From: Frigoriglobus tundricola
Lineage (GTDB): Bacteria; Planctomycetota; Planctomycetia; Gemmatales; Gemmataceae
Direction of reading: 5' to 3'
NCBI RefSeq assembly: GCF_013128195.2
Contig: NZ_CP053452.2
Span: 620,001-684,000, forward strand
Length of the DNA stretch: 64,000 bases
The notes beneath the pieces are model-generated. The model did not search any database. It saw only the letters and a program-made list of their open reading frames with translations, and had not been told where the DNA came from. Below, in pieces: positions 6,539 through 59,967 of the stretch (position 1 is its first letter; the number at the start of each line of letters is the position of its first letter). Made by a program: the position numbers and the translations under genes.

Positions 6539-7438
6539 TCAAACCGCGACCGGCGCTTCGACGGCCGTTCGCTCCTCGCCGGACATGACGTGCTTGGGGG
6601 GCACCTTGACGTTCCACACGACGCCGACCAGCGCGAGCACCCGGATGACCTGATAACTCAGATCGAACTCGTACCACGCGAACCCGTGGCGGGCCGAGTA
6701 CGGGGCGTGGTGGTGGTTGTTGTGCCACCCCTCACCGTGCGTCAGCAGCGCGACCCAGAGGTTGTTCCGGCTCTGCTCGGGCGTCTCGAACCGCCGCGAA
6801 CCGAACAGGTGACAGACCGAGTTCACCGCGTACGTCGCCTGGAGCATGATCACGAGCGGCATGCAGTAGCCGATCACGACGCCGGCCCAGCCCATCGTCA
6901 GGTAGCAGAGCCCCGCGAACAACATGCCGGGCACGAGCCAGAGCCGGTCGAGCCAGACGAGTTCCGGGTACTTCCGCAAGTCCTTCACGACCGCGTAATC
7001 GACGAACAACGTGTCGCTCGCGAACATCCACCCCACGTGCGCGTGCCAGAACCCGCCCTGGACCGGCGAGTGCGGGTCGTCGGGCCGGTCGGAGTGCCGG
7101 TGGTGCAGCCGGTGCGTGGCCACCCACCACAGCGGCCCCTTCTGGATCGCCAGGCACCCGCCCAGCGCGAGCAGGAACTGGAACGCCCGCGAGGTGCCGA
7201 AAGACCGGTGCGCGAAATAGCGGTGGTAGCCGATCGTCACGCTCAGGCCGAACCCGTAAGCGACCCCGAACGCGACCAGGAACGGCCACACGCTCAGTTC
7301 GAGGAACGGGATGGTGAGAAGCGCGAGCAGGGTGACGAGAAAGGTCAAGTTCGAGAGGGCGTTGCGAATCGCGCACCAGCCTTGCGAGCGGGGCCGCGCC
7401 GCGCACGGCCCGAGCGCGTCCGCAGAATGATCTTCCAT
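6539..7438 (-). CDS. Acyl-CoA/acyl-lipid delta-9-type fatty acid desaturase
   Basis: This 299-residue membrane enzyme has the three histidine boxes of the desaturase superfamily: HRYFAH (HxxxxH), HRLHHRHSD (HxxHH) and HNNHHHAP (HxxHH). These bind the di-iron centre that introduces a cis double bond into a saturated acyl chain using oxygen and a reductant. Hydrophobic pairs flank the boxes (FLVTLLALLTIPFLELSVWPFL; LWLVPGMLFAGLCYLTMGWAGVVIGYCMPLV). The sequence around GGCLAIQKGPLWWVATHRLHH is typical of stearoyl-CoA 9-desaturase-like bacterial proteins. It probably adjusts membrane fluidity. It is transcribed alone, convergent with the broken RNA ligase gene. Confidence 0.92.
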   Translation of the reverse strand: MEDHSADALGPCAARPRSQGWCAIRNALSNLTFLVTLLALLTIPFLELSVWPFLVAFGVAYGFGLSVTIGYHRYFAHRSFGTSRAFQFLLALGGCLAIQKGPLWWVATHRLHHRHSDRPDDPHSPVQGGFWHAHVGWMFASDTLFVDYAVVKDLRKYPELVWLDRLWLVPGMLFAGLCYLTMGWAGVVIGYCMPLVIMLQATYAVNSVCHLFGSRRFETPEQSRNNLWVALLTHGEGWHNNHHHAPYSARHGFAWYEFDLSYQVIRVLALVGVVWNVKVPPKHVMSGEERTAVEAPVAV

Positions 7439-46009: not shown

Positions 46010-46037
46010 ACGTGAACCGGAACGTGAACGTATTGAG

Positions 46038-46110
46038 TACCCTCGGCGCGATTCGAACGCGCGACCCCCGGTTTAGGAAACCAGTGCTCTATCCCCTGAG
46101 CTACGAGGGC
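46038..46110 (-). tRNA. tRNA-Arg (anticodon CCT)
   Basis: Read on the minus strand, 46110 to 46038 folds as a 73-nt cloverleaf. The acceptor pairs GCCCTCG with CGAGGGT, the D arm has AGCTCAGGGGATAGAGC, the anticodon stem CTGGT/ACCGG encloses TTCCTAA with anticodon CCT, and the T arm has GTTCGAATC. CCA is not encoded. It lies 156 bases before the integrase gene, with its 5' end facing it, so it is a likely attachment target. Confidence 0.93.
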
Positions 46111-46165
46111 AAATCACAGAAATCCTAGGCTTTTTCACATAGATTGACGATTCGCACTTCCACGT

Positions 46166-54802: not shown

Positions 54803-54812
54803 GGTTGTAGAC

Positions 54813-55100
54813 GTGGCGCTGAACTCACGGCAACTCCGGTTCATTGCGGCGTACCTGCAGGGGCTTCGCGAGGGTACGCCGTGCGCAACTACGGCGTACT
54901 TGTCGGCGGGATACAGGGCCAGCAGGGAGTCCGCCCATGCGTCCGCGAGCCGCTTGTTAGCCTCCGAGCCGGTCCAACAACTTGTGCGGCCGGCCGCACA
55001 AGCGATCGAGGCGGCCCGCCTCCAACAGGTCCGCGGGTTGGAGGCCATGCGGGACCAAATCATGGAACAGTATGGATCGGCGCCCGTGCACACAGAGTAG
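54813..55100 (+). CDS. Terminase small subunit-like protein
   Basis: GTG 54813 gives 95 residues. LNSRQLRFIAAYLQG..CATTAYLSAGYRASRESAHASASRLLASEPVQQLVR matches the N-terminal helix-turn-helix and helical part of phage small terminases (xxKQxxFvxxYLxd, tqAa.rAGYs, a.~~a.rLL~~~~V). Small terminase recognises pac/cos DNA and recruits the large subunit. Here no large terminase follows. The assignment rests on sequence pattern and should be tested by structure prediction. Confidence 0.65.
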   Translation: MALNSRQLRFIAAYLQGLREGTPCATTAYLSAGYRASRESAHASASRLLASEPVQQLVRPAAQAIEAARLQQVRGLEAMRDQIMEQYGSAPVHTE

Positions 55101-55490: not shown

Positions 55491-55898
55491 ATGTCCGCCA
55501 CCAATGCCGACCCGAACCCGGCCGCCAGCCCCCAGAGCGACGAGCAGCGGCTGACCGCCGCCCTCGCGAACGTCGCCGCCCTCACCCGCGGCCTCACCGA
55601 TAGCCTGGGTGAGGCCTTGCAGGGTCCGGTGGCGTTGCTGCAGGCGTTGTCGAAGGCCACGCGAATGACCGGCTCTGAGACAGCGATCTACGGCCAGTCC
55701 ACGGAAAACACCTGTACCCTGTACTTCGCCAGCGCGAAAGATCTGCGAGCGGCCTTCGGCCTCCTCCGCGCCCTCCTGGCCAACTCCCCGCAGACGGCCA
55801 ACACCCCGTCCCAGTCGGCCGGCTCACCCTTCGATCACTGGCTGGCGCCGCTCGCGGACTTGAAGCCGCCCGGAGACGGGACGCAGCCCACGGCATGA
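55491..55898 (+). CDS. Hypothetical protein upstream of the tail chaperone
   Basis: ATG 55491 has a GAAGGAACACC site and gives 135 residues. A helical region (EQRLTAALANVAALTRGLTDSLGEALQGPVALLQALSKATRM) is followed by a short strand-rich part (ETAIYGQSTENTCTLYFASAKDL) and a proline-rich end. It takes the place where a head-tail connector or major tail protein gene might be expected, but it is not recognised as one. Confidence 0.45.
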   Translation: MSATNADPNPAASPQSDEQRLTAALANVAALTRGLTDSLGEALQGPVALLQALSKATRMTGSETAIYGQSTENTCTLYFASAKDLRAAFGLLRALLANSPQTANTPSQSAGSPFDHWLAPLADLKPPGDGTQPTA

Positions 55899-55958: not shown

Positions 55959-56261
55959 ATGTCCGAGTTGGTCATCACCGACGACGGGTTCATTGCCGTG
56001 AAAATTGGTGACGTGGAAGCCGTCATCGATTCGTATCAGATGCACAATCAGTTATTAGACATCGACGCGAAGCTTGCCGACGAGATGCCGGAGGCCAGCC
56101 CGGCGGCCCGTGCGGTGGCGTTCAACGAGCGTGTCGCGGCGCTGCTCCAGCCAAAGTTCGGCACCGTGAGCCACCGGGCCGCGGACAAGTTCGCGCAGGC
56201 GCTGTTCCGGGCGGTCGAAGAGCTAAAAAAAGCCGACGCGGCCGCGCCGACGCCCGCCTAG
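55959..56261 (+). CDS. Tail assembly chaperone, short form (gpG-like)
   Basis: ATG 55959 is preferred because GGAG lies 6 bases upstream. This gives 100 residues in frame 0 (MSELVITDDGFIAVKIGDVEAVIDSYQMHN, then a helix LADEMPEASPAARAVAFNERVAALLQPKFGTVSHRAADKFAQALFRAVEELKK). It ends at TAG 56259-56261. The last codons before the stop include the A7 slippery site. Short and long chaperone forms are typical of phage tail modules and act on the tape measure protein. Confidence 0.75.
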   Translation: MSELVITDDGFIAVKIGDVEAVIDSYQMHNQLLDIDAKLADEMPEASPAARAVAFNERVAALLQPKFGTVSHRAADKFAQALFRAVEELKKADAAAPTPA

Positions 56262-56284
56262 CGTTCCACTACGGCGCGGCCGCG
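56225..56284 (+). promoter_or_regulatory. Programmed -1 frameshift signal (A_AAA_AAA slippery site plus stem)
   Basis: Seven As (56225-56231) are positioned as A_AAA_AAA in frame 0. Four bases downstream of the following G, a perfect 12-bp stem CGCGGCCGCGCC (56237-56248) pairs with GGCGCGGCCGCG (56273-56284) around a 24-base loop. The stop codon of frame 0 (56259-56261) lies in the loop. This layout matches the classical gpG/gpGT frameshift. Confidence 0.85.
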
Positions 56285-56497
56285 CTGAGCCTCCCGCCCG
56301 GGCAGAAGCTCGTCCTGCTCGCCCAACTCGACGGCGTGTTGGCCGAGGAGGAGCTGCGCGCCACGGGCGGCGCGGGCCTCTCCACCGAAGCGTACTTCCA
56401 CCTGGTGGAGGCGGCGACCGGGAGCACGGCGGCGGCCGAGCGGGCGGCGCGGAAGCGGGTGGCCGAGCAAATGCGGAACGGGCAGACGCCCAGCTGA
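56231..56497 (+). CDS. Tail assembly chaperone, -1 frameshift extension (gpGT-like)
   Basis: After slipping on the A-run the ribosome would read AGC onward in the -1 frame and make an 88-residue extension: a basic link, then FHYGAAALSLPPGQKLVLLAQLDGVLAEEELRATGG, YFHLVEAATGSTAAAERAARKRV and a stop at 56495-56497. The fused product would have about 179 residues. No ATG, GTG or TTG lies in this frame until 56333, so the conserved part cannot be translated independently. This strongly supports the frameshift model. Confidence 0.8.
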   Translation, partial: SRRGRADARLAFHYGAAALSLPPGQKLVLLAQLDGVLAEEELRATGGAGLSTEAYFHLVEAATGSTAAAERAARKRVAEQMRNGQTPS

Positions 56498-56510: not shown

Positions 56511-58035
56511 ATGGCAGACGCGCGTTTAGTCATTTCGATCCGGGACGACGGCCCGACCGCCGAGCGCCCCCCCGGCGCGCCCGGCAATCCGGCGGACCGG
56601 GCCACGGACGCCGCGTGGGTAACGGCATCGATCGCGGCGGCGCGCGCCGAAGAGGACTACTACCGCCGGGCTGCTGCTGGCGTGCTCCCCGCCGGCCGGG
56701 GCGTGGCCGGCGGGGCTCATCTCCGCCCGGCGCACCACCTCCGGCCCCAGTAGGCGGCCTGCCCGCCAGTCCGCCCCGCGCCCGCGGGGGCGCTCGTGGT
56801 CCGATCTGGGGTTCGACGAGCAGCGCAAGGCGGCCCTCAACGGCCGGCCCGAGGGCGTTACCGATCGCGAATGGGAGGCGTACGGTCGGCAGAACGCGCG
56901 CCTCGGGGCCTCGGCGGCACGCGTCTCCGGCCGGGCGAGCGCTCAGGCCCAGCGCCGCCGGGAAGAGGAAGAGGAGCAGGCCCGCGCGCAGGCCGAAGAG
57001 GACGCCCGGACGTTCGCCCGCGGACGCGACCGGCGCGAGCGGGCCGCGGCTCAGGAGGCTTCCGAGCGGGCCCAACTCGAAAACCGACGGCGCGCTGAAT
57101 CGCATGCCCGGTCCGAGGCGGGAACGGTCGCCGGGGCCGGTTTCGGACGCTACGCCGGAGCTGCGATCGGCACCGCCGTTGCGCCCGGGGTAGGTACGGC
57201 CATCGGCGCCGTGGGCGGCGGCCTCTTGGGGGGCCTCGTTGGCGGCCGCGTGGCGGGCGAGCGGGACGCGGCGAAAGACGAGAAAGAAGGCAAAGGCGGC
57301 GTCCGCGGGCAACTCGAGGCCGGCGCCGACGGTGTCAGCCAGGCGCTGCGGTTTGCGGGCGACGTGGTCCAGAACTACGGTGAGCGCTTTCAGAAAGTCG
57401 CCCAGGGCGACGCGGTCGGCGCCCTGAACAAGGCCGTGGAGGGGGCCGCGCACGTGGTGGAGCAGATCCCCGTCGTCGGCAAGCCGCTCGCCGAGGGGAT
57501 GACCTTAGCCCGGAAGGCGCTCCAGGCGTTCAAGGACACCGTGGACGCGTTCGCCACCCGCGGGCGGGAGATCTCAGGCTACAACGGCGCGCTGGCCGCG
57601 TCGGTCGCCCGCCAGGACGTGACCCGGACGCTCACGGACATCCGCGAAGCGCAGATGCTCGGCGACAAGTACGCCAAGCTCATCGACGGGCAGACGCGCT
57701 TCGAGGAGACGCTCAAAGCGGGACTGTTGCCGCTAAAAGAATTCGTGCTCGACGTGCTGACTAAGTGGATGGACGTCATCCTGGAATACATGATCAAAGG
57801 GCTCGAACTCCTTAACAAATTGAACCCCTTCGGGGACATCCTCGGCGACATGGCCGCCAGCGCGCGCGAGACGCGCGACCTGCTCCGCGGCGACGGCGAC
57901 CCCCGCTTCGGAAGCGGTTCAAGCCTGGTGGACGCGTGGCTCCGGGCACCGCTCGGCACCCGCCCGGCGCCCGGCGAGCGGCTCCCCCCGGACGTTGGCG
58001 GCCTCGGCGTCCCCCTGTTCGCTCCCGGCCGGTAA
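56511..58035 (+). CDS. Tape measure-like tail protein, frameshifted in this sequence
   Basis: The gene follows the tail chaperone directly, as tape measure genes do. From ATG 56511 the frame reads MADARLVISIRDDGPTAERP to AEEDYYRRAAAG and then ends at 56753. The +1 frame continues without a start codon from about 56700 (WSDLGFDEQRKAALNGRPEG) to 58035, with a coiled-coil, glutamate-rich middle, glycine-rich hydrophobic stretches (AGAAIGTAVAPGVGTAIGAV and GGGLLGGLVGG) and a helical C-terminus. The combined protein has about 507 residues. The frame break is near 56660-56720. It could be a mutation, an assembly error or a second recoding site. Confidence 0.65.
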
Positions 58036-58044
58036 GGAGAGGTC

Positions 58045-59967
58045 ATGGCGCTCGAACGCTTCGGCGACCCGATGCACGCCCAGTACGGTTCGCACGTATT
58101 TAGTGCGGCGGCGGAAACGACGGATCTACGCATCACGCCCACTTATGACGCCGCGGGCCGGACGGTCCCCTATTCCGTCTACAGCATCACGATCAGGGAG
58201 TACATTTCTCCGTCGATCGGCGGAATCGCGGTCGCTCCGACTTCGGCCCAGATCCTCACCGCGGCCGCCGTGAAAAGTGCGATTGCAACCCTCTCCAAGA
58301 ACGGCGACGTCTTCCGCTATCAAAGCCGCGGGCTCGGCGACCTCACCATCAATACGGGCGCGACGACGGACGTCGTGTGGGGACCCAAGCCGCGCGTCAT
58401 CGGAGTGAAATTGCACGGCGGCCTGACCGTCGAGCTGACGTGGACCGTCGAGGTCGCCATCCCGAACTGCGCCGACGCGGTGTTCAAGTTCGCGCTGATG
58501 GAATTCAACTTCAAGCTCTCGTTCGACAAGGACCGCCAGGGCTACACCACCCGCGTCTACTCCGGGTTCCTTCGGATTCCGCAGACCAAGCGGAGCGTCG
58601 GCGACCGCACCCTCTCCGACAGCGCCGACGCGTACCTGGAGAAGATCTACCCGCCCATGCTCCCCGGGTTCCGCCGCATCCCCGGATCGTGGGTGCTTTC
58701 GGAGGACAGATGCCGGGGCGACTTTACGATCACGGACGAGGAGATGCCCCCGACCGCGCCGCCGGTGGGCTGCATCGAGGTGGAATCGAACCACGTGTAC
58801 CACACGACCGGCTCGCTGGCCAAATGGGGCGTGACGCTGTCGGCGAAGTACGACATCCAGCGCGGCGCGAGCCCGGTGTTCGCGGTTCAGGCGTTCCTGG
58901 CGCTGCTCAGTGCCCGCATGGCGACCGACGTGGCCGGGATGAAGGTCGGGGACGGGCTCGACCTGAGCGGTACCGATCTCGCCCCGAAGCTCAAGCCGTT
59001 TCTGGACAACAAATCGAAGCCGATCTCACTGATCCCGGTTGCGGCGTCGGCCTCGGAGCCGAACATCTACGGCCGCACGCAGGCGCAACTGTCCGTCACC
59101 CTGGCCTTCGCCGGCGTCGGGTTCGGGGCCGTGTTCGCAAAGAGCAGCCTCTGGACGTCAGTACCGGCGGCGGCCGGCGGCGTGTGGAAGGACTGGGCGC
59201 TCAACGTGGGCACCCTGCTCGGCCCGCGGGGCTACGCTCAGCTCGTGTTCCGGCCGAACGAAGACTCCATCGTGGACCTGTGCGGCAGGACGAGCGCTGC
59301 CACGCCCGGCGGCGGCGCCGGCAGCACCATCGGCGCCCCGCCCGCGGCACCGCCCTCCCCCGGCGGCGGGGGCATCTTTGGCCTCTTCGGCGGGGGCCTC
59401 TCGGGCCTCCTCAGCGGTGCGATCGGGTCCCTGTTCCCGCCCCCCACCCCGGCGACGTCCTGGCTGCACTACAAGTGCGACGCCACCGTTCACGCCGACA
59501 CCGGCCGCGTCGTGGTGACCACGCTCCCGAACAGTCCGATCGTGCCCAGCCCGCAGACCCAGACGGCGGTGTGGGACGTGTTCAACACGCTCCCGGTGGT
59601 GGACGGCCAATCGGCGTCGGCGTTCCCCCCGCTCGCCGGCATCATCGACCAGGGGCCGGGCGGCCAGGGCGGCTCGCAGAGCGACGTCGGGACGGTGACC
59701 ACCCAGCAGCGCACGCGGCCGAAGCTGTACGTGACGATCACCGGGCAGGCGCTGCGCGCGGGGTTCCCGATCCCGATGCCCGAAGTGGTGTCGATCAACG
59801 GCGCGGCCCCGACCCTCATCGGGCGCCCGTACTTCGCGCAGGCCATCGTCGCGAACGGGCTCACCCCGATCGTCCGCGCCGACTGGTCGTACACCTATCT
59901 GTTCACGGATGACGGCGGCCTGCCGTCCGGCCCGGTGCCGGTCGTGCCCACCGGGTTCCTGACGTGA
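58045..59967 (+). CDS. Large tail structural protein of the element
   Basis: This is a 640-residue protein with an AAGGAGAGG ribosome site. No family is recognised. The N-terminal 430 residues look beta-rich (YSVYSITIREYISPSIGG; LTVELTWTVEVAIPNCADAVFKFALMEFNFKLSF; YHTTGSLAKWGVTLSAKYDIQ). A low-complexity glycine and proline region lies at about 430-475 (GGGAGSTIGAPPAAPPSPGG, then GIFGLFGGGLSGLLSGAIGS). The C-terminal 160 residues are beta-rich. Position after the tape measure suggests a distal tail or hub protein. Confidence 0.6.
   Translation: MALERFGDPMHAQYGSHVFSAAAETTDLRITPTYDAAGRTVPYSVYSITIREYISPSIGGIAVAPTSAQILTAAAVKSAIATLSKNGDVFRYQSRGLGDLTINTGATTDVVWGPKPRVIGVKLHGGLTVELTWTVEVAIPNCADAVFKFALMEFNFKLSFDKDRQGYTTRVYSGFLRIPQTKRSVGDRTLSDSADAYLEKIYPPMLPGFRRIPGSWVLSEDRCRGDFTITDEEMPPTAPPVGCIEVESNHVYHTTGSLAKWGVTLSAKYDIQRGASPVFAVQAFLALLSARMATDVAGMKVGDGLDLSGTDLAPKLKPFLDNKSKPISLIPVAASASEPNIYGRTQAQLSVTLAFAGVGFGAVFAKSSLWTSVPAAAGGVWKDWALNVGTLLGPRGYAQLVFRPNEDSIVDLCGRTSAATPGGGAGSTIGAPPAAPPSPGGGGIFGLFGGGLSGLLSGAIGSLFPPPTPATSWLHYKCDATVHADTGRVVVTTLPNSPIVPSPQTQTAVWDVFNTLPVVDGQSASAFPPLAGIIDQGPGGQGGSQSDVGTVTTQQRTRPKLYVTITGQALRAGFPIPMPEVVSINGAAPTLIGRPYFAQAIVANGLTPIVRADWSYTYLFTDDGGLPSGPVPVVPTGFLT

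What the first reader, a model, noticed from the sequence alone, without database searches (positions are those of the whole stretch)
55959..56497. Tail assembly chaperone gene with a textbook -1 programmed frameshift
Frame 0 ends shortly after an A_AAA_AAA slippery run (56225-56231). Four bases beyond the following G, a perfect 12-bp GC stem (56237-56248 with 56273-56284) would pause ribosomes. The -1 frame is open for 88 codons with no usable start codon in its first 100 bases. The gene stands right before a tape-measure-like gene, exactly where such chaperones occur. The site layout matches lambda G/GT, but the protein sequence looks novel.
Basis: partly seen in the sequence, partly recalled or inferred. 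Interest (0 to 1): 0.85.

Follow-up and report, generated by a model that had tools for sequence, protein, structure and literature searches.

The report
Phage tail chaperone with ribosomal frameshift
A prophage-like element in a planctomycete carries a probable tail-building helper gene read in two overlapping frames by a ribosomal slip, a trick well known from phage lambda but here in a protein family that matched nothing in the databases searched.

Summary

Relatives make it more than a pattern. All five genes of this family that I found (four genomes, one order) have a single in-frame XXXYYYZ exactly where homology passes to the -1 frame. A second copy in the same genome has G_GGA_AAA: all three X bases changed together, which argues against sequencing error and, there, against transcriptional slippage. 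The -1 domain is 33-38% identical to the three distant members and changes like protein in that frame. The strong stem is kept in 3 of 5. Two relatives lie in fuller prophages with terminase and head genes.

Most likely it is a lambda G/GT-type tail assembly chaperone of a sequence family without a Pfam, PHROGs or phage-record match: a new member of a known kind. In the window's element no capsid, portal, tube or large terminase was recognised among the genes scanned, and the tape-measure gene is frame-broken, so it may be a remnant. Fusion protein and chaperone function are inferred.

The parts
55959..56261 (+). Frame-0 product of the tail assembly chaperone (G-like), 100 aa, ATG to TAG
   Evidence: homologues in four genomes; AF2 model pLDDT 83.7 from a 5-row alignment, beta hairpin plus three helices
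56225..56231 (+). Slippery heptamer A_AAA_AAA; G_GGA_AAA in the second copy of the same genome
56232..56236 (+). 5-nt spacer (same length in Zavarzinella formosa)
56237..56284 (+).
   Evidence: z about -3 to -4
56231..56497 (+). -1 frame extension (T-like), 88 aa after the slip; fused product 179 aa
56511..58035 (+). Tape-measure-like gene; does not read as one frame in either copy of this genome (indels), so disrupted or misread
58045..59967 (+). 640-aa protein found beside the module in all loci compared; possibly a tail hub (weak fold evidence)
54804..55100 (+). Terminase small subunit-like protein (start assumed)
   Evidence: phrog_51, E 1e-9
55491..55898 (+). 135-aa protein of unknown function between terminase-like gene and chaperone; relative in the second copy

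Best explanation
55959-56497 is a tail assembly chaperone gene of a tailed prophage (or its remnant) expressed by a programmed -1 ribosomal frameshift. Most ribosomes read frame 0 and stop at 56261 (100-aa G-like product). A minority, paused by the GC stem, slip back one base when P- and A-site tRNAs re-pair on A_AAA_AAA, and read on to 56497, giving a 179-aa GT-like fusion. By analogy with lambda, the short form would coat the tape measure protein and the -1 domain would recruit tail tube subunits. Shown by sequence: site, both frames, conservation. Inferred: the slip itself, its rate, the chaperone function.
For: (1) Window, second copy in the same genome, Zavarzinella formosa DSM 19928 (handle G028; identified by equal contig length, 405,270), G093 (another family of the order) and G014 each have exactly one in-frame XXXYYYZ, where homology passes from frame 0 to -1; fused lengths 179, 181, 180, 171 and 176 aa (sums; 179). 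(2) The second copy has G_GGA_AAA: all three X positions changed from A to G, slipperiness kept, followed by 81 identical nt. (3) The -1 domain is 33-38% identical to the three distant members; between the two copies it has 16 synonymous and 10 nonsynonymous codon differences in -1, against 4:21 and 1:21 in the other frames. (4) Between the copies the only indel within 55959-56497 is 6 nt, while the tape-measure-like gene carries six and the 640-aa gene one that are not multiples of three. (5) Family profiles of the N and C parts hit the same four genomes of 102 in the order at E below 1e-30; the next hits are E 0.08-0.10 (2 genomes) and 0.01-0.09 (8 genomes). These profiles were built from the same five genes. 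(6) Context: followed by a tape-measure-like gene; the G014 and G093 relatives lie in prophages with terminase (phrog_979) and major head protein (phrog_29; E 9e-5 in G014, 1e-14 in G093) and, in G014, a Mu Gp36-like protein. (7) Lambda yardstick, same layout: G_GGA_AAG, 15 nt before the G stop, 144-aa extension.
Against: No match to any described chaperone by sequence, by profile against lambda G or by fold. The downstream stretch folds no better than shuffles in G093 and G014. Gene place varies: after the 640-aa gene in Z. formosa and G093, on the opposite strand between tube-like and tape-measure-like genes in G014. In the window's element no tube, capsid, portal or large terminase was recognised among the genes scanned, and its tape measure is disrupted. 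Most loci with a 640-aa relative did not show this family (2 of 14 did). No protein data.
Confidence: 0.85

Rival explanations
1. Transcriptional slippage on the A run, not the ribosome, makes a fraction of mRNAs with a changed A number, so the fusion is made by ordinary translation.
For: Seven A in the window, Z. formosa and G093, nine A in G014. Either mechanism gives the same fusion.
Against: The second copy has GGGAAAA, only four A, at the same junction, which favours tandem tRNA slippage; the stem at a 5-nt spacing in the window and Z. formosa also fits the ribosome.
Confidence: 0.05
2. The frame break is a sequencing or assembly error, or a decayed gene: one indel in a homopolymer splits a single ORF.
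For: The two copies of the neighbouring tape-measure-like gene differ by indels that break frame, in GC-rich runs, so the assembly or the element does contain such errors or mutations.
Against: The same -1 break at the same place in four separately assembled genomes of one order, one a named isolate; different heptamers at the site; no frame-breaking indel within the chaperone gene between the copies.
Confidence: 0.01
3. Two separate genes: the -1 ORF has its own start and is translated by coupling.
For: GTG/TTG codons exist inside the -1 ORF; in G014 the -1 frame is open upstream too.
Against: In the window the first start is 105 nt past the slip and in G093 the first is at gene nt 465, beyond most of the conserved -1 block.
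Confidence: 0.02
4. A genuine programmed frameshift, but in a phage protein other than a tail assembly chaperone (for example another structural or regulatory protein).
For: No sequence or fold match to known chaperones; variable gene place; in Z. formosa only three neighbours were scanned and none matched a head family.
Against: Short helical N product plus a 84-91-aa -1 extension beside tape-measure-like and tube-like genes is the usual arrangement of such chaperones (recalled). The frame-pair scan of the G014 and G093 stretches gave one hit each in L052 and L056 (this gene), none in L066 and three in L068 that I take for chance, one of them antisense to a head gene.
Confidence: 0.07

Closest known systems
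Phage lambda gpG/gpGT (gene G/T frameshift, J02459)
   Same: Single in-frame XXXYYYZ near the 3' end of a small ORF, -1 extension, gene next to the tape measure gene (function from passages of PMC5009743)
   Different: Heptamer G_GGA_AAG; 140 aa and 144-aa extension against 100 and 88; no detectable sequence similarity
Other tail assembly chaperone frameshifts of dsDNA tailed phages (Xu et al. 2004, seen only as a reference entry; passages of PMC10885494)
   Same: Programmed shift in a chaperone gene, widely conserved despite low sequence similarity (passage of PMC5009743)
   Different: No relative of the frame-0 product in 50,697 phage records; host is a planctomycete
A second frameshift gene family in Gemmatales loci L061, L064, L065
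   Same: Small gene between tube-like and tape-measure-like genes (L061, L064) with C_CCT_TTC, or C_CCT_TTT in L065, at a -1 switch; the extensions of L061 and L064 are homologous (42% over 50 aa, E 2e-11)
   Different: No similarity to this family noticed; other heptamer; the relative in L062 lacks the site

Membership tests
Lambda G/GT-type tail assembly chaperone | Slippery XXXYYYZ in frame near the end of the short ORF | tested here: met
   5 of 5 family members, one site each, 27-63 nt before the frame-0 stop
Lambda G/GT-type tail assembly chaperone | -1 frame open past the 0-frame stop and conserved as protein | tested here: met
   84-91 aa in 5 of 5; alignment A4; codon changes fit the -1 frame
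Lambda G/GT-type tail assembly chaperone | No independent start for the -1 domain | tested here: met
   4 of 5 members; L052 cannot be judged, its -1 frame being open upstream with GTGs
Lambda G/GT-type tail assembly chaperone | Downstream pausing structure | tested here: inconclusive
   Strong in window, copy 2 and Z. formosa (z -3.1 to -4.8), not in L056 and L052
Lambda G/GT-type tail assembly chaperone | Lies between tube gene and tape measure gene | tested here: inconclusive
   Window: before a tape-measure-like gene, no tube gene recognised. L052: between tube-like and tape-measure-like genes, opposite strand. Z. formosa and L056: after the 640-aa gene. 'Tube-like' and 'tape-measure-like' rest on position, appearance and homology among these loci; family searches gave no significant tail match
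Lambda G/GT-type tail assembly chaperone | Sequence or fold similarity to described chaperones | tested here: inconclusive
   No family match, hhalign to lambda G probability 0.2%, no clear fold match; such chaperones are very diverse
Lambda G/GT-type tail assembly chaperone | Both forms made at a defined ratio; short form binds tape measure, extension binds tube | not testable with these tools
   needs protein data

The most novel reading that the evidence does not exclude
The two elements of this genome are not dead prophages but satellites that carry their own integrase, replication, terminase part, tape measure, chaperone and hub, and borrow capsid and tube from a helper phage; the frameshifted chaperone would then couple a satellite-encoded tape measure to a helper's tube and reset tail length.
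Probability: 0.05. Interest if true: 0.75.

Novelty: new member of a known kind. Interest (0 to 1): 0.36.

Why it matters
It extends the lambda-type frameshift, as a prediction, to prophages of Gemmatales (Planctomycetota) and adds a chaperone-like sequence family without a match in Pfam, PHROGs or the searched phage records. The A_AAA_AAA / G_GGA_AAA pair within one genome is a natural experiment suggesting that slipperiness, not the codons, is what is kept. Such sites also give a sequence-independent way to spot chaperone genes in prophages whose proteins match nothing.

Tried and rejected
IMG/VR scans with the -1 peptide (45 pattern matches, none confirmed) and the 640-aa protein (no match); phage records with the frame-0 product and the 640-aa protein: no relative. 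The -1 part was not searched in the phage records. Phylum-wide searches of 392 genomes drawn evenly: the N profile gave only the window's genome at E 0.01; the C profile gave that one and an E 0.0088 hit in an 832-aa frame, not followed. Only some first-look candidates per genome were scored there, so relatives can be missed. The first search with P0002 gave weak hits in G014 and G006; G014 proved real (opposite-strand gene in L052); the G006 place did not recur with the family profile, and the stretch fetched for it (L016) was not analysed.

Fold of the frame-0 model: PDB best E 1.4; BFVD best E 0.03, an uncharacterised protein of an uncultured phage (TMq 0.66); VIA-align best Z 4.5. The 640-aa model is poor (pLDDT 60.5); best VIA-align Z 6.2 (112 residues, rmsd 3.5, a T5 connector chain) and 6.1 (109 residues, rmsd 3.3, a type VI secretion protein similar to a T4 one), both in the N-terminal part: a lead only.

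The first DNA alignment of the two copies was made in the wrong orientation and discarded. Of the 14 stretches fetched for 640-aa relatives, 2 hold this family (L052, L056), 1 a T_TTT_TTC candidate (L060), 4 the second family (L061, L064, L065 with a site, L062 without), and in 7 no chaperone gene was recognised (L053, L054, L055, L057, L058, L059, L063). The frame-pair scan of 17 loci gave 20 hits: 2 are family members, 3 candidates (L060, L061, L064), 15 I take for chance; it missed L065 because of its distance limit.

PHROGs passes over genes of the window element and copy 2 showed no head, portal or tube protein except the small (window) and large (copy 2) terminase; one 169-aa protein of copy 2 had a weak hit (E 0.007) to a tail protein with lysin activity. 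Not all predicted genes were scanned.

Literature: five searches listed no paper whose title or abstract start describes a frameshifted chaperone in planctomycete prophages; the library is limited and those papers were not read. Seen: passages of PMC5009743 and PMC10885494; the rest as listings.

Full report
What was claimed and what is there. All of it is in the sequence at the stated places. Frame 0 runs 55959-56261 (100 aa). The run 56225-56231 is in phase as A_AAA_AAA. The stem 56237-56248 / 56273-56284 is perfect and follows a 5-nt spacer. The -1 frame gives 88 more residues, ending at 56497. The first possible -1 start is 105 nt past the heptamer.

A second copy in the same genome. The window is G000:C1:620001-684000 of a 9.86-Mb genome. 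A second copy of the gene lies at G000:C1:9719693-9720230 on the minus strand, 90% identical. Blocks of homology run from window 55518 to about 67003, with a gap near 61.5-61.9 kb and without the integrase and replication genes. In that copy the junction reads CTG GGA AAA G, so the heptamer is G_GGA_AAA: the three X bases have changed from A to G and the Y and Z bases have not. The next 81 nt, stem included, are identical. Three changes that keep XXX a repeat are hard to explain unless slipperiness is selected. The only length difference within the gene is 6 nt, while the tape-measure-like gene carries six and the 640-aa gene one indel that break frame.

Distant relatives. In each, one in-frame XXXYYYZ lies exactly where homology moves to the -1 frame; it is AAAAAAA in these three. 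The fused proteins of the five are 171-181 aa. With family profiles, which were built from these five genes, both halves are found in the same four genomes at E below 1e-30 among 102, and the remaining hits are at E 0.01 or weaker. The genomes are separate assemblies, so a shared error is not credible.

Selection on the -1 frame. Between the two copies, the stretch after the slip has 16 synonymous and 10 nonsynonymous codon differences if read in -1, but 4 and 21 in frame 0 and 1 and 21 in +1. The frame-0 tails after the slip are short, Ala/Pro/Ser-rich and unconserved apart from the two near-identical copies.

Structure of the signal. The stem is strong in the window, copy 2 and Z. formosa (z about -3 to -4.8), in the last with different sequence but the same 5-nt spacer. 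In G093 and G014 the downstream stretch folds no better than shuffles. So the heptamer is the constant element and the stem is not.

What the protein is. No significant Pfam, PHROGs, PDB-sequence or phage-record match (the phage records were searched with the frame-0 product only). AlphaFold2 gives a fairly confident small fold, a beta hairpin and three helices, without a clear structural match. The chaperone assignment therefore rests on gene layout and context. The window's gene precedes a tape-measure-like gene part of which is homologous to a 475-aa protein near the Z. formosa gene. In G014 and G093 the relatives lie in prophages with large terminase, major head protein (weak in G014) and other head or connector genes. 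By analogy with lambda, where gpG and the rare gpGT bind tape measure and tube (passages of PMC5009743), the two products here would do the same; that is inference.

State of the element. The window element starts beside tRNA-Arg (46037-46110) with an integrase (phrog_1), then a DnaB-like helicase and a small-terminase-like protein. Copy 2 has a large terminase upstream (phrog_38, E 1e-61); none was recognised in the window's element. No capsid, portal or tube gene was recognised in either among the genes scanned. The tape measure gene is not a single frame in either copy, and the copies disagree by indels in GC-rich runs. The element may be a remnant, or the assembly may carry errors; the chaperone frames are intact in both.

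A second frameshift family. Loci L061, L064 and L065, with distant 640-aa relatives, carry another small gene with C_CCT_TTC or C_CCT_TTT at a -1 switch. Their frame-0 proteins are homologous (L061-L064 42% over 159 aa), and so are the extensions of L061 and L064 (42% over 50 aa, E 2e-11), with a short match to L065; a fourth relative, L062, lacks the site. L060 has a T_TTT_TTC candidate from a scan with a high chance rate.

Verdict. A conserved programmed -1 frameshift signal, most likely in a lambda-type tail assembly chaperone of a new sequence family in Gemmatales prophages. It is a new member of a known kind; the paired heptamers in one genome and the moving gene place are its most notable features.

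Noticed in passing
window 56511-58035 and copy 2: Tape-measure-like gene is split over several frames in both copies, with differing indels in GC-rich runs: decay or assembly error.
   Followed up: partly
window 46072-46124 and G000:C1 715638-715691: A 54-bp near repeat (96%) of part of the tRNA-Arg gene and its upstream flank lies about 49.6 kb away: likely attachment repeats of a composite island with further integrase-like genes.
   Followed up: partly
L052 3545-4071: Chaperone gene lies on the opposite strand between tube-like and tape-measure-like genes, with nine A at the slip site.
   Followed up: partly
L061 7503-8050 (-), L064 7237-7778 (-), L065 5184-5767 (+): A different small gene family with C_CCT_TTC or C_CCT_TTT at a -1 switch; extensions of L061 and L064 homologous; the L062 relative (7000-7377) lacks the site.
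   Followed up: partly
L060 2071-2639: Candidate frameshift gene with T_TTT_TTC upstream of a neck-like gene in G038.
   Followed up: partly
window 60062-64003, minus strand: Block of small minus-strand genes mostly near identical in the two copies (five at 100%, one at 72%), far more conserved than the replication genes; function unknown.
   Followed up: no
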